Assembly: GCF_003330845.1 (NCBI RefSeq)
Contig: NZ_CP026121.1
Coordinates: 2,957,501-3,021,500 of the forward strand
DNA length: 64,000 nucleotides
DNA from: Streptomyces sp. Go-475
Lineage (GTDB): Bacteria; Actinomycetota; Actinomycetes; Streptomycetales; Streptomycetaceae
Direction: 5' to 3'
Shown here: piece by piece, positions 1 through 11,953 of the stretch
Layout: every line of letters begins with the position of its first letter
How positions within the stretch are numbered: the first letter of the stretch is position 1
Notes under the pieces: model-generated
What the model was told of the DNA's origin: nothing
Databases searched by the model: none
The model's input: only the letters and a program-made list of their open reading frames with translations
Made by a program: the position numbers and the translations under genes

Positions 1-403
1 CCGCCGGACGGCCGGGGCGCCCGGCGGGGGTGATCTTGTTGTGTCCTGCCCCGTGCGGCAGCACGATCACAGGACTCTGCAGTTCGTGGAGGCTGCCGTG
101 GCTGGCGGCCAGCGCCAGGTCGAAGCCGGTCTGCACGGCCTGGCTCCATGGCATCACCAGGCCGCCCAGCTGTTCCAGGAACTCGGACACGCCGTTGCCG
201 AACACGTCGGGTGCCTGGGTGAAGATCGTCTGCACCCTGATGTCGCCTTCCAGCAGGCGTATCGCGTCGAGCAGCCGCTGCCCGGATATCACCGTGTGCA
301 CCACGACCAGGACCCGCCTGCGGGTCCGTCGGGTGGCCCAGCGCTCGACGTCCAGCCGCACCGGCACGTGACGCCAGTGGGGTTCGGGCACTGTCACACT
401 CAT
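1..403 (-). CDS. Partial conserved streptomycete protein of unknown function (GT-B-like)
   Basis: Left-edge fragment: only the first 134 codons lie in the window and the frame is still open at base 1. ATG at 403 follows a GGGGGAC ribosome binding site. The protein opens with a Rossmann-like strand-loop (VLVVVHTVISGQRLLDAI, about residues 31-48) and later contains LPHGAGHNK. This pattern is known from Streptomyces proteins that resemble CDP-glycerol glycerophosphotransferase or nucleotide-sugar enzymes and often sit beside SARP regulators. There is no signal peptide or membrane segment in the visible part. It is transcribed away from the SARP gene across a 267-bp shared upstream region, so it may be a target of that regulator (inference). 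The catalytic function is unknown. Confidence 0.7.
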   Translation of the reverse strand, partial: MSVTVPEPHWRHVPVRLDVERWATRRTRRRVLVVVHTVISGQRLLDAIRLLEGDIRVQTIFTQAPDVFGNGVSEFLEQLGGLVMPWSQAVQTGFDLALAASHGSLHELQSPVIVLPHGAGHNKITPAGRPGRPA

Positions 404-4079: not shown

Positions 4080-4526
4080 TCAGTCTCGTTCGTGCGAAGA
4101 CGGGCCACCGGAGCTGTGGAACGTCAGCCCGGAGAAGCTCTGCCCCTGCACGACCGGCCCGTGCTGCACGCCGCCGCTGATGCTGTTGCGCACCGAGACC
4201 GACGGCTCCCCGCCCTCCCGCGGGTCCAGCTCCGCCAGCAGCGACCTGAGTTCCTCGGCGGCCCGGGGGTCGGCTTCCAGCGCACGGCGCAGCCGGGTCC
4301 GCCACTCCGCCTCGACACCGGCCGCGGCGTCTTCGTCCCGCGCGTCCCGGGCCGCCGCCAACTCCGCCTGCGCGGACCGCAGTTCCTCCTCCACCGCGCC
4401 GTCGTCACCGCGCCGCGCGAAGAACCGCGCCACGCGGTCGCGCGCCGCTGTCCAGCTGTCCGACACCATGAGCCCGACCAGGGTCGTGGCCCCGGACGCG
4501 GCCAGTGCCGCAAGCTCAGCCTCCAC
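4080..4526 (-). CDS. Small helical protein with C-terminal RHIM/BASS-like amyloid motif
   Basis: 148-residue protein starting at GTG 4526 behind an AGGGGGG ribosome binding site. The first 40 residues are a hydrophobic, helical block (LAALAASGATTLVGLMVSDS) and 45-100 is a charged Ala/Glu/Arg helical region likely to form a coiled coil. The tail from about residue 114 is Gly/Asn/Gln/Val-rich (NSISGGVQHGPVVQG, then SGLTFH). This arrangement matches my recollection of actinobacterial Bell-domain proteins that end in a BASS (RHIM-like) amyloid-signalling motif; the family assignment is inference without a profile search. It converges on the SARP/NB-ARC gene and lies head-to-head with the dehydrogenase. 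No signal peptide, so it acts in the cytoplasm or at the membrane face. It could alternatively be an uncharacterised membrane-associated protein. Confidence 0.65.
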   Translation of the reverse strand: MEAELAALAASGATTLVGLMVSDSWTAARDRVARFFARRGDDGAVEEELRSAQAELAAARDARDEDAAAGVEAEWRTRLRRALEADPRAAEELRSLLAELDPREGGEPSVSVRNSISGGVQHGPVVQGQSFSGLTFHSSGGPSSHERD

Positions 4527-5740: not shown

Positions 5741-6022
5741 ATGTCTCGCATCGCGAAGGCAGCCGGTGTCGCGCTCGGCACGGGTGCCGTGGTGGTCAGC
5801 GGAGCCGGTCTGGCCCTGGCCGACGCGGGCGCCCAGGGCAAGGCCGTCGGGTCGCCGGGCGTCCTGTCGGGCAACATCCTGCAGGTCCCGGTCCACGTGC
5901 CGATCAACCTCTGCGGCAACACGGTCAACATCGTGGGCCTGCTGAACCCGGCGTTCGGCAACGAGTGCGAAAACAAGGACGACCACAAGGGCCACCACGG
6001 TGGCTACGGGTACGGCCACTGA
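5741..6022 (+). CDS. chpG: Short chaplin with His/Gly-rich tail (ChpG-like)
   Basis: 93-residue exported amyloid-forming surface protein that helps coat aerial hyphae and lower water surface tension. A Sec signal peptide covers residues 1-27 (ends GLALA, cut before DAGAQ). The mature chaplin domain follows, with the family block SPGVLSGN, two cysteines (58 and 76) in NLCGNTV and GNECEN, and alternating hydrophobic residues between them. ATG 5741 is preferred over GTG 5738 because GGAG at 5731-5734 is better spaced. The tail after Cys76 (DDHKGHHGGYGYGH) is unusual for a short chaplin: five His plus Tyr/Gly. Its position beside melC suggests ChpG. A sigma-BldN-like promoter lies upstream and a strong hairpin downstream. 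Confidence 0.92.
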   Translation: MSRIAKAAGVALGTGAVVVSGAGLALADAGAQGKAVGSPGVLSGNILQVPVHVPINLCGNTVNIVGLLNPAFGNECENKDDHKGHHGGYGYGH

Positions 6023-6126: not shown

Positions 6127-6993
6127 TCACGCGTACCGGTAGATCCGCTCGTGGTCCTCCAGCTGGTCCGGCGTCACGTCCCACGGCGGCAGCTTCTCGT
6201 GCCGCGCCACCACCCGCCGGTACTGCGCGCTGTCCGGTCCCGGCGGCTTCGCCGGCAGGTAGCGGTGGTTGCGGTGGCGCCGCTGCCAGCGGGACCACAC
6301 CAGGTCGATGAAGGCGTGGTGCAGCCAGAAGACCGGGTCGTTGACGGACGCGCCGCCGACCATGACCCCGCCGACCCAGCGGTGCACGCGGTTGTGGTTG
6401 TACCAGGAGGCGCTGCCCCGCCCGCTCCCCCACCCCTCCAGCTTGTTGCGGAAGCCCTTGCCCGCCGTCGAGTCCCAGGGCGAGACGTCGTACACCGGGT
6501 CCTTCAGGGCCCATTCCAGCTCGCTCCTGGTGGGCAGCTTGATCGGGTCGCGGGCGCGGCCGAGGTCCCGGGTGAGGAACTCCTCGTCGGTCACGCCCTC
6601 CCTGATGGTCCAGTTGCCCTCCGCGTAGGCGAACGGCCCGGTCGTCACCTGGCGGTCGGAGCGCCGCCCGTTGCCGCCGAGGAGGTCGGCGGTCCAGGGC
6701 ACCGACGTGGTCGTGCGGTCGCGCGTCCAGTCCCAGTACGGCACGGACACCGACGCGTCGACCCGGCGCAGCGCCTTCTCCAGCTCCAGCAGGAACTGCC
6801 GGTGCCAGGGCAGGAAGGAGGGCGCCATGTGGGCCGTGCGCAGGCCGTCCTCGCCGTCGGCGGTGTAGTACTCGATGTGCGTGCGCACGAACTCGTCGTA
6901 CTCGCCCCGCCGCTTCACCTCCAGCATCGCCTTGACGAACCGGCGCCTCTCGGTGCGCGTCAGGGTGCTGACGTCCTTACGCGTGTACGCCAT
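6127..6993 (-). CDS. melC2: Tyrosinase (monophenol oxidase), type-3 copper enzyme
   Basis: 288 residues, about the family length (270-290). Oxidises tyrosine and o-diphenols to quinones, the first step of melanin formation. CuA ligands are visible at His39 (RTHIEYY), His55 (TAHMAPS) and His64 (FLPWHRQF); CuB ligands lie in NHNRVH and in WLHHAF. VPYWDW and EGWGSG are family blocks. There is no signal peptide of its own: export relies on the twin-arginine signal of the partner MelC1, which also loads copper. The start at 6993 overlaps the end of melC1 (stop at 6977-6979) by 17 bp, so translation is coupled. The Tyr-rich chaplin next door is a conceivable substrate, but that is speculation. Confidence 0.95.
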   Translation of the reverse strand: MAYTRKDVSTLTRTERRRFVKAMLEVKRRGEYDEFVRTHIEYYTADGEDGLRTAHMAPSFLPWHRQFLLELEKALRRVDASVSVPYWDWTRDRTTTSVPWTADLLGGNGRRSDRQVTTGPFAYAEGNWTIREGVTDEEFLTRDLGRARDPIKLPTRSELEWALKDPVYDVSPWDSTAGKGFRNKLEGWGSGRGSASWYNHNRVHRWVGGVMVGGASVNDPVFWLHHAFIDLVWSRWQRRHRNHRYLPAKPPGPDSAQYRRVVARHEKLPPWDVTPDQLEDHERIYRYA

Positions 6994-8218: not shown

Positions 8219-8824
8219 TCAGCTCGTCCAGAAGTCCCACCAGCGCGTCAGGACCAGCATGCCGACGACGCCGAGGTGCAGCACCGGCGGCAGCCAGGTG
8301 AACTCGTCGAGGAAGCGGCGCACCGGCCGAGGCGCGGGCAGGAAGGCGTGCCGCACGGCGAACGACGTCACGTACCAGAACAGCGGGATCGTCGCGGCCC
8401 ACGCGAGGCAGCACCACAGGCACAGCGCGTCGATCCGGTACAGCGACTCGAACTGCAGCCACGACACGAACCCCACACCGAACAGGCATCCGGCGTCGAA
8501 GGCCAGCCAGTACCAGCGGGGGAACCGGGCGCCGGCCAGCAGGCTCACGCCGACGCAGACGACGACGCCGTAGGCGACCAGTCCCAGCATCGGGTTGGGG
8601 AACCCGAAGGCCTCGGCCTGGTCGCTCTCCATGACGCTGCCGCAGGACAGGACCGGGTTGATGCTGCATCCGGGGGTGAAGTCCGGGTCCTCGAGCAGCT
8701 TGAACTTGTCGAGGGTGATGATCCAGGACGCCAGCAGCCCCGCCGCTCCCGTGACGACCAGCAGCAGGGCGAACGCCCGGCCGGCGCCCGCCGTGCCTGC
8801 CGCGTGGTGCGCGGGCGGGGTCAC
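8219..8824 (-). CDS. Vitamin K epoxide reductase (VKOR) family disulfide-forming membrane enzyme
   Basis: 201 residues with about five membrane helices. The VKOR signature is clear: the active-site CxxC sits in LCLWCCLAW in a C-terminal helix and the shuttle cysteine pair in CSINPVLSCGSVM after the first helix. VKOR reoxidises menaquinone-linked thiols and supplies disulfides to a periplasmic DsbA-like partner in actinobacteria. The start codon is GTG 8824, overlapping the stop of the upstream exported protein (GTGA), so the two genes are translated together. Its neighbours are chaplins, which need their conserved Cys pair oxidised outside the cell, so a dedicated folding role is plausible (inference). 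The enzyme family assignment itself is secure. Confidence 0.9.
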   Translation of the reverse strand: MTPPAHHAAGTAGAGRAFALLLVVTGAAGLLASWIITLDKFKLLEDPDFTPGCSINPVLSCGSVMESDQAEAFGFPNPMLGLVAYGVVVCVGVSLLAGARFPRWYWLAFDAGCLFGVGFVSWLQFESLYRIDALCLWCCLAWAATIPLFWYVTSFAVRHAFLPAPRPVRRFLDEFTWLPPVLHLGVVGMLVLTRWWDFWTS

Positions 8825-9105
8825 TTCGGCAGCGGAAGCCCGCCGAGCAGCCCGCCGTTCTGGTTCAGCTTCGTGGTCGCCTGCTTGACCGTGCTGAGCA
8901 CGGAGTCCTCGTTCTCGGTGTCGAGCGCGTTCGACTGGTGCTTGAGCGGCATCGGGTCGATGGGCTCCCGGGTGAGCGCGTTGACGGCGCCGTTGAGGCT
9001 GGTGGGGGTGACGGCGTCGGTGTCGTAGGCGGCGTGGGCGGGAGCGGCGCCGGCTGCGGCGACGAGGGAACCGGCGACGACGGCGGCAGCCTTCAGGGAC
9101 TTCAT
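8821..9105 (-). CDS. Small exported protein translationally coupled to VKOR
   Basis: 94 residues, ATG 9105. A Sec signal peptide spans residues 1-25 (MKSLKAAAVVAGSLV, ends APAHA). The mature part contains no cysteine and is Asn/Thr/Leu-rich: TPTSLNGAVNALTREP, VLSTVKQATTKLNQNG and a Gly-Leu-Pro end (LLGGLPLPK). It resembles small exported proteins found near chaplins in streptomycetes, but I know of no function. The stop overlaps the VKOR start by 4 bp. Lack of cysteine means it is not itself a VKOR substrate. The Gly-Leu-Pro ending is shared in style with the protein at 9247 (LAGLPSLPKAP), suggesting related surface proteins. Confidence 0.8.
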   Translation of the reverse strand: MKSLKAAAVVAGSLVAAAGAAPAHAAYDTDAVTPTSLNGAVNALTREPIDPMPLKHQSNALDTENEDSVLSTVKQATTKLNQNGGLLGGLPLPK

Positions 9106-9885: not shown

Positions 9886-10072
9886 GACGGTTCCTTTCGG
9901 TGGTGCGTCGGATCTTTGTGCCCACCGTGCGAGCGGCCGGAACGCTCCGCAACCGAGCGAACGCCCCAGGTCAGCACCGCACCCCCGGCCCGGCGGCGTC
10001 CCCCCTGGTGAGGCGGCGTGCGCGGTCCCGCCCGCCGGGCCGCCCCGCCGCCCCCGTTCGGCGCAACGCGAA

Positions 10073-10112
10073 CCGGCCGCCCTTCCGTGTGGTCCCACGG
10101 GAGGGCGGCCGG
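10073..10112 (-). terminator. Hairpin terminator after chpF
   Basis: The inverted repeat GGCCGCCCTTCCGTG / CACGGGAGGGCGGCC begins about 20 bp past the chaplin stop codon. Long GC stem, no U-tract. Confidence 0.75.
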
Positions 10113-10133
10113 CCAGGTGTTCCGGGAACGACG

Positions 10134-10373
10134 TCAGTCGTTCTCGCACTCGTTGCCGAACGCCGGGTTCAGCAGGCCGATGATGTCGACCGTGTTGCCG
10201 CAGACGTTGACCGGGATGTGCAGCGGCACCTGGACGACGTTGCCGGACAGCACGCCCGGGGAGTGGGCGGCGGCGGCCTGCGCGCCGGCGTCGGCGGCGG
10301 CGATGCCGGTGCTGCCCGCGACAGCGGCAGCGGCAGCGGAGGTCAGGACCAGGCCCTTCGCGATACGCGACAT
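10134..10373 (-). CDS. chpF: Short chaplin (ChpF-like)
   Basis: 79-residue exported amyloid-like surface protein. The signal peptide is residues 1-27 (MSRIAKGLVLTSAAAAA, cut before DAGAQ). One chaplin domain follows with SPGVLSGN, Cys58 in NVCGNTV and Cys76 in GNECEND, ending three residues after the second Cys, which is the canonical short-chaplin size. ATG 10373 lies behind AAGGAG. Its signal peptide start MSRIAK is identical to that of the chaplin at 5741, so the two are close paralogues. A sigma-BldN-like promoter and a striking hairpin lie in the 5' region (10393-10457). Position just before the polysaccharide cluster supports ChpF. Confidence 0.93.
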   Translation of the reverse strand: MSRIAKGLVLTSAAAAAVAGSTGIAAADAGAQAAAAHSPGVLSGNVVQVPLHIPVNVCGNTVDIIGLLNPAFGNECEND

Positions 10374-10392
10374 GGAGAGGTGCTCCTTGGGG

Positions 10393-10434
10393 GTTGACAC
10401 AAACATCCGGGCGGATGCCCGGCGTTGTGTCAAC
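10393..10434 (-). promoter_or_regulatory. Nested stem-loop in the chpF leader/promoter
   Basis: Perfect 10-bp arms GTTGACACAA (10393-10402) and TTGTGTCAAC (10425-10434) enclose a second perfect hairpin CCGGGC-ggat-GCCCGG. The outer arm overlaps the -10-like element, so it could be an operator in DNA or a leader structure in RNA. Confidence 0.55.
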
Positions 10435-10457
10435 GCGTGGCGTGCGCGCGAGTTGTG
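10430..10457 (-). promoter_or_regulatory. Putative sigma-BldN promoter of chpF
   Basis: Read on the minus strand: CACAAC (10457-10452), 16 bp, CGTTGA (10435-10430). The -10 is a perfect match and the -35 four of six to the reported CGTAAC-N16-CGTTGA consensus. Confidence 0.55.
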
Positions 10458-10789
10458 CCGCCAAAGGAGTGATCCCGGCGCAGGGGCGCTCTTCACGGTT
10501 CCGACACACTCGTCCGGTTTCTCCGGAATAGTACGGATGGCGACTACAGTTGCGCACCTCTCAACGCACCCCGACAGCAAGCAGATCGCACTCGTGACGG
10601 CCCCTGACCCGTCCGTCGAAAGGACCACGTTCCGCGAAGCCCTGCGGTGTGGTGGTGACCAGGTGGCCTTCCGGCTCGTTCCCCAGCGGAACGCGGCGTG
10701 CGCCGGCGCGCTCTTCGGCGCCGTCGGCATCCGGCAGTGAGGCGCGTTCCCGCCGTCCCGAGCGCCGTCCGTGAGCGAGGAAACCGCGC

Positions 10790-11953
10790 ATGCACCTGTC
10801 ACCGACCGACCCTCCGCCACGGGTCCTGCACGTCACCCAGCCCGTGGACGGCGGGGTGGCCCGGGTCGTGACGGACCTGGCCCGCGCCCAGCTCGCCGCC
10901 GGACTGCGCGTCACGGTCGCCTGCCCCGACAGCCCCCTCGCGGCCCGGCTCACGGCGCTCGGCGCGGACGTGCGGCACTGGGCGGCGACTCGCTCGCCGG
11001 GGCCGTCACTGATGGGCGAGGCGCGGCGGCTGGCCCGTGTCGTCGTGGACGTGCGGCCCGACCTGGTGCACGCGCACAGCGCGAAGGCCGGGCTGGCCGG
11101 GCGGCTCGCCGTGCGGGGGCGGATCCCGACCGTGTTCCAGCCGCACGCCTGGTCGTTCGAGGCGGTCGGCGGGACCACCGCGGCCCTCGCCCGCGGCTGG
11201 GAGCGGTCGGGCGCGCGCTGGGCGGCGAGGGTGGTGTGCGTCAGCGAGGCGGAGCGCCGGCTCGGGGCGGCGGCCGGGGTCCGGGGGCGGTGGAGTGTCA
11301 TCCCCAACGGGATCGACGTCGAACGCTTCCGGCCGGCCGCCGCGGACGCCGTACGGGCGAGCCTGCTGCCGGACGTCGATCCGGGGGCGCCGCTGGTGGT
11401 GTGCGTGGGGCGGCTGTGCCGGCAGAAGGGGCAGGACGTCCTGCTGACGGCGTGGGACTCCGTGCTGCGGCGGGTGCCCGGGGCGCGGCTGGCGCTGGTC
11501 GGCGACGGGCCGGACCACGGCCGGCTGCGGGCCCTCGCGCCGCGTTCCGTGCTGTTCGCGGGGGACGTCGCCGATGTCGTGCCCTGGTACCAGGCGGCGG
11601 ACCTGGTCGTCCTGCCGTCGCGCTGGGAGGGCATGGCGCTGGCGCCGCTGGAGGCCATGGCGTGCGGTCGGCCGGTGGTCGTGACGGACGTGGGCGGGGC
11701 CCGCGAGAGCCTGCCGCCCGGCCACGCGCCGCACTGCCTGGTCCCCGCCGTCGCCCCGGCGGCACTGGCCGGGGCCCTCGCCGAGTTGCTGCTCGATCCG
11801 CCGCTGCGCGAGTCGCTCGGCCTGCGGGCGCGCCGGCACGTCCTGTCCACACACGACGTGCGCCGCACGGCCCAGGCGGTCGCGGACGTGTACCGCGAAC
11901 TCCTGGGCGCGGACGCCGTGTCCACCGAGTACAGGGAGTCAGTCCACTCGTGA
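10790..11953 (+). CDS. GT4-family glycosyltransferase, first gene of polysaccharide cluster
   Basis: 387 residues, GT-B fold retaining glycosyltransferase of the GT4 type, transferring a sugar from a nucleotide donor to a lipid-linked acceptor at the cytoplasmic membrane face. The N-terminal acceptor domain opens VLHVTQPVDGGVARVV, a typical GT4 glycine-rich loop. The donor domain contains NGIDVERF, GRLCRQKGQD and the E-x7-E motif in WEGMALAPLEAMACG. The start at ATG 10790 gives full length. The stop overlaps the GTG of the sugar-phosphate transferase (GTGA), so the two are translationally coupled and head the operon. Donor and linkage cannot be deduced. Confidence 0.9.
   Translation: MHLSPTDPPPRVLHVTQPVDGGVARVVTDLARAQLAAGLRVTVACPDSPLAARLTALGADVRHWAATRSPGPSLMGEARRLARVVVDVRPDLVHAHSAKAGLAGRLAVRGRIPTVFQPHAWSFEAVGGTTAALARGWERSGARWAARVVCVSEAERRLGAAAGVRGRWSVIPNGIDVERFRPAAADAVRASLLPDVDPGAPLVVCVGRLCRQKGQDVLLTAWDSVLRRVPGARLALVGDGPDHGRLRALAPRSVLFAGDVADVVPWYQAADLVVLPSRWEGMALAPLEAMACGRPVVVTDVGGARESLPPGHAPHCLVPAVAPAALAGALAELLLDPPLRESLGLRARRHVLSTHDVRRTAQAVADVYRELLGADAVSTEYRESVHS

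What the first reader, a model, noticed from the sequence alone, without database searches (positions are those of the whole stretch)
4080..4526. Possible BASS/RHIM-type amyloid-signalling protein next to an NB-ARC regulator
The 148-residue protein has a hydrophobic helical N-terminal block, a charged helical middle and a Gly/Val/Gln tail (NSISGGVQHGPVVQG, then SGLTFH) that resembles prion-like BASS motifs attached to Bell-type domains in actinobacteria. In that system a nucleotide-binding TPR protein with a matching motif triggers the Bell protein. Here an NB-ARC/TPR protein (SARP) lies 154 bp away, though I see no matching motif in it. If right, this is a cell-death or signalling amyloid lying among structural amyloids (chaplins).
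Basis: partly seen in the sequence, partly recalled or inferred. Interest (0 to 1): 0.7.

Follow-up and report, generated by a model that had tools for sequence, protein, structure and literature searches.

The report
NLR-paired amyloid-type signalling effector, Streptomyces
A small helical bacterial protein ends in a short prion-like tag whose match sits at the front of an immune-receptor-like (NLR) protein encoded just outside the window, so the two probably form a cell-death or alarm switch of a kind already described in bacteria.

Summary
The 148-aa protein is real: minus strand, 4526 to 4080, with 447 homologues. It is a five-helix domain plus a disordered tail holding a conserved 26-residue motif. 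A profile built only from NLR N-termini of other genomes, run over the whole 8.57-Mb genome, has two matches below E 0.1: the N-terminus of an NB-ARC/TPR protein about 1.5 kb outside the window (1.2e-9) and this tail (0.005). In relatives the effector gene runs into such an NLR gene, with a 4-nt overlap in 13 of 18 loci; in 5 of 80 loci both are one protein. The neighbouring SARP, like the five other SARPs checked, lacks the motif. So the reading is largely right: an NLR/effector pair sharing an amyloid-type motif. The partner is not the SARP, and the RHIM label fails (no VQVG core). Effector-NLR linkage is loose: 4 of 11 clusters found through the NLR have the effector beside them. BASS/Bell profile membership, fibrils and killing could not be tested. 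New member of a known kind.

The parts
4080..4526 (-). Effector gene, 148 aa: five-helix N-terminal domain plus disordered tail with amyloid-type motif
   Evidence: translation; 447 homologues; alignments; AlphaFold2 model
4227..4526 (-). Helical (Bell-like) domain, residues 1-100; helices 2-20, 25-37, 42-61, 65-85, 89-100
   Evidence: block-mean pLDDT 86-96 over residues 1-100; fused to NB-ARC/TPR in L066, L067, L084, L089, L094
4116..4193 (-). C-terminal shared motif, residues 112-137 (VRNSISGGVQHGPVVQGQSFSGLTFH)
   Evidence: conservation; matched by a profile of NLR-side motifs from other genomes, E 0.0048 over the whole genome
671..3925 (+). SARP regulator (BTAD + NB-ARC + TPR), start taken at MVELL; conserved neighbour of the partner NLR, carries no motif itself
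   Evidence: Pfam; no motif; synteny
1..403 (-). 5' part of a conserved 418-aa gene of unknown function (runs off the window start) between the NLR and the SARP
   Evidence: present in 16 of 16 loci examined; no Pfam or NCBIfam match. The partner NLR itself lies outside the window at G000:C1:2953850-2955991 (+), about -3650 to -1509 in window coordinates

Best explanation
The protein is the effector of a two-component NLR signalling pair. The NB-ARC/TPR protein just outside the window is the sensor. When its NB-ARC/TPR part is triggered (ligand unknown) it oligomerises and brings its N-terminal motifs together. These nucleate a beta-arch/amyloid-like assembly that templates the same motif on the C-terminal tail of the effector. 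The clustered effector helical domains then act, most likely on the cell's own membrane through the hydrophobic first helix, giving regulated cell death or growth arrest. Shown here: the family, the architecture, the shared motif, its near-restriction to these two proteins in the own-genome scan, and operonic and fused forms in relatives. Inferred from the published BASS/Bell work: amyloid templating, membrane action, cell death.
For: A profile of NLR-side motifs from 16 loci of other genomes has two matches below E 0.1 in the own genome: the NLR N-terminus (1.2e-9) and this tail (0.0048), 7.7 kb apart (150 of 208 candidates scored). A profile of 120 effector tails (own included) scores >=8 bits before the P-loop in 26 of 43 NB-ARC-like ORFs, against 1 of 4300 shuffles and 0 of 42 control pieces from the same proteins. 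Profile-profile P 1.2e-11. Effector stop overlaps NLR start by 4 nt in 13 of 18 loci. Single-protein fusions in 5 of 80 loci. In 150 genus genomes all 11 with an orthologue of the own NLR (own genome included) also have an effector-family match at E<=1e-10, against 49 of 139 others, Fisher p 2.3e-5. Disordered tail on a helical bundle.
Against: NLR and effector are 5.6 kb apart here, with two genes between. Of 11 clusters found through the NLR, only 4 (own included) have the effector beside them; in the other 7 the effector-family matches listed lie on other contigs or megabases away, and in G124 the listed match is in an 844-aa fused frame. The own NLR motif scores only 3.3 bits with the effector-tail profile. 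An NLR-motif profile gave the own tail 18.0 bits but the effectors of L112-L114 only 2-3 bits. Paired motifs are no more alike than swapped ones (9.60 against 9.53 identities; 946 of 2000 permutations; 10 pairs). First helix is not a clear TM segment. No fold match. Only 26 of 80 effector loci show a motif-bearing NB-ARC protein within up to 10 kb (some loci end at contig ends).
Confidence: 0.7

Rival explanations
1. The helical domain is an adaptor (effector-associated-domain type) rather than a membrane killer: the motif joins NLR and adaptor and the helical domain recruits something else.
For: Small helical domain, also fused directly to NB-ARC/TPR receptors and, as a distant relative, at the N-terminus of another large NTPase/TPR protein in the same genome (E 2.2e-4). 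The EAD principle for such domains is described in PMC8195603 (passages). First helix only borderline hydrophobic.
Against: The strongest conservation is in the hydrophobic first helix (3.76 bits), which suits a membrane role. EAD2 appears for 1 of 144 family members, at E 0.031 (25 of 31 families shown).
Confidence: 0.2
2. The motif is a conserved docking tag that works by ordinary binding, not by amyloid templating.
For: No fibril data exist for this motif here; it lacks the VQVG core of the BASS3 peptide; effector-side and NLR-side versions differ systematically (Q-G then F.GLTF against Q-A then HGGITF).
Against: Length (about 25 residues), G/N/Q/V make-up and the C-terminal/N-terminal positions match the BASS layout (PMC7889193 and PMC8086366 passages); three of four tested peptides in PMC8086366 section 13 aggregated.
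Confidence: 0.2
3. The SARP is the true partner and the pair regulates transcription (development or antibiotic genes), with the motif incidental.
For: The SARP is beside the NLR in 10 of 11 clusters found through the NLR and 154 bp from the effector here.
Against: No motif in any of 6 SARPs. In L112 the SARP is absent while NLR and effector remain. None of the 16 operonic loci showed a hit above 1000 bits to the SARP (up to three hits listed per locus).
Confidence: 0.08

Closest known systems
BASS / Bell-NLR bacterial amyloid signalosomes (Dyrka et al. 2020, J Mol Biol; not held, known here through passages of PMC7889193, PMC8086366, PMC9815663)
   Same: Small helical protein with C-terminal motif; NLR with a matching motif at its N-terminus; adjacent or overlapping genes; filamentous actinobacteria
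   Different: In this genome the two genes are split by a SARP and an opposite-strand gene; one-protein fusions seen in relatives; published profiles not available to assign a BASS number
Fungal HET-S/NWD2 and HELLP/PNT1
   Same: NLR with N-terminal prion-like motif activating an effector with the same motif at its C-terminus (PMC7889193 passages)
   Different: No sequence relation tested; the effector model has no fold match in the PDB lists
BASS3 / RHIM
   Same: Short Gly/Val/Gln motif in the same positions
   Different: The published BASS3 peptide carries GVQVGDGN; here GPVVQG, no VQVG core
BASS2
   Same: BASS2 is reported to carry an ARD 3-mer (PMC9815663 passage); several homologues here read Q-G-R-D-F after the core Gln
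   Different: The window protein reads Q-G-Q-S-F; no profile test possible

Membership tests
BASS amyloid signalling system | Motif at the C-terminus of a small helical effector | tested here: met
BASS amyloid signalling system | Matching motif at the N-terminus of an NLR (NB-ARC/NACHT + repeats) | tested here: met
   own genome E 1.2e-9 and 0.0048 with a profile holding no own sequence; 26 of 43 NB-ARC-like ORFs in related loci
BASS amyloid signalling system | Adjacent or overlapping effector and NLR genes | tested here: inconclusive
   met in relatives: 4-nt overlap in 13 of 18 loci; in the window's own genome two genes lie between, and 7 of 11 NLR clusters have no effector beside them
BASS amyloid signalling system | Hit to a published BASS1-10 profile | not testable with these tools
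   profiles not held; original paper not held
BASS amyloid signalling system | Fibril formation / prion-like seeding | not testable with these tools
   needs peptide work
Bell domain | Small alpha-helical bundle | tested here: met
   five helices, block-mean pLDDT 86-96 over residues 1-100
Bell domain | Hydrophobic transmembrane helix | tested here: inconclusive
   Kyte-Doolittle 19-mer maximum 1.57; 3 of 144 reach 1.6
Bell domain | Match to Bell profile or to a HeLo/MLKL structure | tested here: inconclusive
RHIM / BASS3 | VQVG-type core as in the published BASS3 peptide (the RHIM tetrad itself is recalled) | tested here: not met
   tail reads GPVVQGQ against GVQVGDG; no Pfam RHIM hit at E<=1
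SARP as motif partner | Matching motif in the SARP | tested here: not met
   0 of 6 SARPs, own included

The most novel reading that the evidence does not exclude
The cluster NLR - unknown 418-aa gene - SARP - effector is one four-part system: an amyloid-type NLR death switch wired to a SARP transcriptional activator, so that the same stimulus can both trigger the effector and reprogramme transcription (for example development or antibiotic production) in Streptomyces.
Probability: 0.18. Interest if true: 0.78.

Novelty: new member of a known kind. Interest (0 to 1): 0.52.

Why it matters
It offers a concrete pair, in a genus that can be handled genetically, in which to test whether bacterial NLRs act through amyloid templating; [quoted passage not shown] The natural series from two overlapping genes to one fused protein, and the conserved SARP beside one NLR lineage, make the wiring testable by deletion.

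Tried and rejected
SARP as the motif partner: rejected, no motif in 6 of 6 SARPs. RHIM/BASS3 assignment: rejected on the core. The published BASS3 peptide against 396 genomes of the phylum: 0 hits, which shows nothing. Effector-tail profile A2 over the own genome: only the query locus is significant, next best E 0.56, so it did not find the NLR by itself. Profile A4 found the NLR but contains the own NLR motif as a row, and there the effector tail had only E 1.75; A7, without any own sequence, replaced it. Its 16 rows were picked by me as motif-bearing NLRs found beside effectors, so the tail match is not fully blind. In these scans 150 of 205 (A2), 247 (A4) and 208 (A7) candidates were scored. 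Cognate specificity between paired motifs: none found, in 10 of the 16 motif-bearing operonic pairs. Fold search: no HeLo/MLKL-like chain seen in the lists, which excludes nothing. A second protein search with divergent members listed only members that look like the same family (120 of 236 listed). Of nine genes downstream of other effectors, five are plainly other enzymes, two had no Pfam match, one is nSTAND1 (L054) and one tectonin (L079). Papers: searches (0 papers) showed no paper on this locus in their listings (titles and starts of abstracts only).

Full report
What is there. The ORF lies on the minus strand of 4080-4526 and encodes 148 residues from a GTG start. In the first alignment 27 of 30 sequences start at the same M-[ED]-A-E position; P0027 has an N-terminal extension and P0109 and P0121 begin five residues later. 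phmmer found 447 homologues at E<=1e-3, with the best 120 listed; the organisms named there are Streptomyces, Embleya and Actinacidiphila. Further relatives lie in Kitasatospora, Microbispora, Sphaerisporangium, Actinomadura and Streptantibioticus. That the window is Streptomyces is inferred from these homologues. The window protein has no Pfam, NCBIfam or PADLOC match above a cut-off. DUF7071 scores 14.4 bits against a cut-off of 27, and 27 of 144 family members match it at E<=0.1, best 4.6e-4.

Relatives show the system. A scan of one genome per species gave 95 relatives, of which the best 80 loci were kept (L017-L096). NB-ARC-like ORFs were picked in these 80 loci and the own cluster by resemblance to the SARP, not by motif: 46 ORFs, 43 of them with a P-loop and enough sequence before it. 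A profile of 120 effector tails scores >=8 bits before the P-loop in 26 of the 43. Sixteen of these 26 are on the same strand directly after the effector, 4 are one protein with it, 5 lie beyond a convergent SARP, and 1 (L028) lies on the opposite strand. The same profile reached 8 bits in 1 of 4300 shuffled regions and in 0 of 42 control pieces. The 17 ORFs below 8 bits include all 6 SARPs and the own NLR (3.3 bits). A fifth fusion, L067, scored 5.7 bits and was not among the 43. In 18 loci with an NB-ARC-like ORF downstream, the effector TGA overlaps the NLR start codon as NTGA in 13. Two other kinds of downstream protein show motif matches: a tectonin-domain protein in L079 (E 0.0009) and, weakly, an nSTAND1 protein in L054 (E 0.14). 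Of the nine downstream genes put to Pfam, these two included, five are plainly unrelated enzymes and two had no match.

The partner in this genome. Searching the own genome (one contig, 8,570,609 bases) with the NLR of L017 gave a best hit at 2953868-2955976. The protein starts at 2953850, ends at 2955991, about 1.5 kb before base 1 of the window, and begins VRSHELRVQNELSGTVHGATIQAGAVHGGIHF before its NB-ARC and TPR parts. The frames printed for the five other hits (L098-L102, of which L100 is the window's SARP) show no such motif by eye, the one for L099 being uninformative. The strongest test is: a profile from 16 NLR-side motifs of other genomes, none from this one, matches the own NLR (E 1.2e-9) and the window protein's tail (E 0.0048); the next places are partial matches at E 0.48 and 0.71; 150 of 208 candidates were scored. 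The effector-side and NLR-side profiles align with P 1.2e-11. The effector is single-copy at E<=1e-10. A weaker relative of its helical domain (E 2.2e-4, 30% identity) heads a large NTPase/TPR protein elsewhere in the genome that matches the FxSxx-COOH TPR family below its cut-off (159.9 against 300).

Linkage. Orthologues of the own NLR (about 834 bits or more, 64% identity or more; the next match has 453 bits) were found in 11 of 150 genus genomes, own included. All 11 have an effector-family match at E<=1e-10, against 49 of the other 139, Fisher p 2.3e-5; relatedness of the genomes is not corrected for, and in G124 the match listed lies in an 844-aa fused frame. Around these 11 NLRs the opposite-strand 418-aa gene is present in 11 and the SARP in 10, but the effector is beside the cluster in only 4 (own, L112, L113, L114), in either orientation. 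In the other 7 the stretch read shows no effector (four of these stretches end inside the SARP), and the effector matches listed lie on other contigs or megabases away. Five further loci picked because effector and SARP were together (L019, L022, L033, L036, L081) all have the 418-aa gene and the NLR beyond it. In L112 the effector is present although the SARP is missing. An NLR-side motif profile found the motif in all 11 orthologue loci, in L119 in a separate frame, and in the own effector tail at 18.0 bits, but gave the effectors of L112-L114 only 2-3 bits.

How it probably works. The layout (C-terminal motif on a small helical effector, a matching motif at the N-terminus of an NLR, overlapping genes in relatives) is that of the BASS/Bell systems described in passages of PMC7889193, PMC8086366 and PMC9815663. 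There an activated NLR is thought to template the motif of a membrane-targeting Bell protein. I read the window pair the same way. The templating, membrane and death steps are inferred, not shown. The main alternatives are an adaptor role for the helical domain and a non-amyloid docking motif.

The SARP is not the motif partner. The RHIM label fails on the core sequence when set beside the published BASS3 peptide. A BASS2 leaning (the ARD 3-mer reported in PMC9815663, against QGRDF in several homologues) is only a hint. Paired effector and NLR motifs are no more alike than swapped ones. Published profiles could not be run. Novelty is therefore modest: a well-supported new member of a known kind, with the conserved NLR - 418-aa gene - SARP cluster as the part most worth pursuing.

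Noticed in passing
window 1-403 (-), continuing to L016:11650: Conserved 418-aa gene of unknown function between NLR and SARP, present in 16 of 16 loci examined; no Pfam or NCBIfam match and no PDB match better than E 0.97.
   Followed up: partly
window 5741-6022 (+), 6127-6993 (-), 10134-10820 (-): Chaplin, tyrosinase and a second chaplin-domain ORF (ChpA-C, Tyrosinase); the ORF at 8821-9105 (-) looks rodlin-like by recall, with no Pfam match above cut-off.
   Followed up: partly
G000:C1:5597192 onward (L014): Large NTPase/TPR protein with a CbiA/ParA-type domain whose N-terminus is a distant relative of the effector's helical domain; no motif seen by eye.
   Followed up: partly
L093 (Streptomyces violaceoruber), 9983-10434: The effector copy appears split: the helical domain ends early and a tail-like motif lies in another frame.
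   Followed up: no
L029 and L061: Downstream NLRs appear split into separate frames, with the motif in one frame and NB-ARC in another.
   Followed up: no
L079:10480-11850 (+): A tectonin-domain protein with an N-terminal motif match (E 0.0009) sits downstream of an effector, a possible non-NLR sensor.
   Followed up: no
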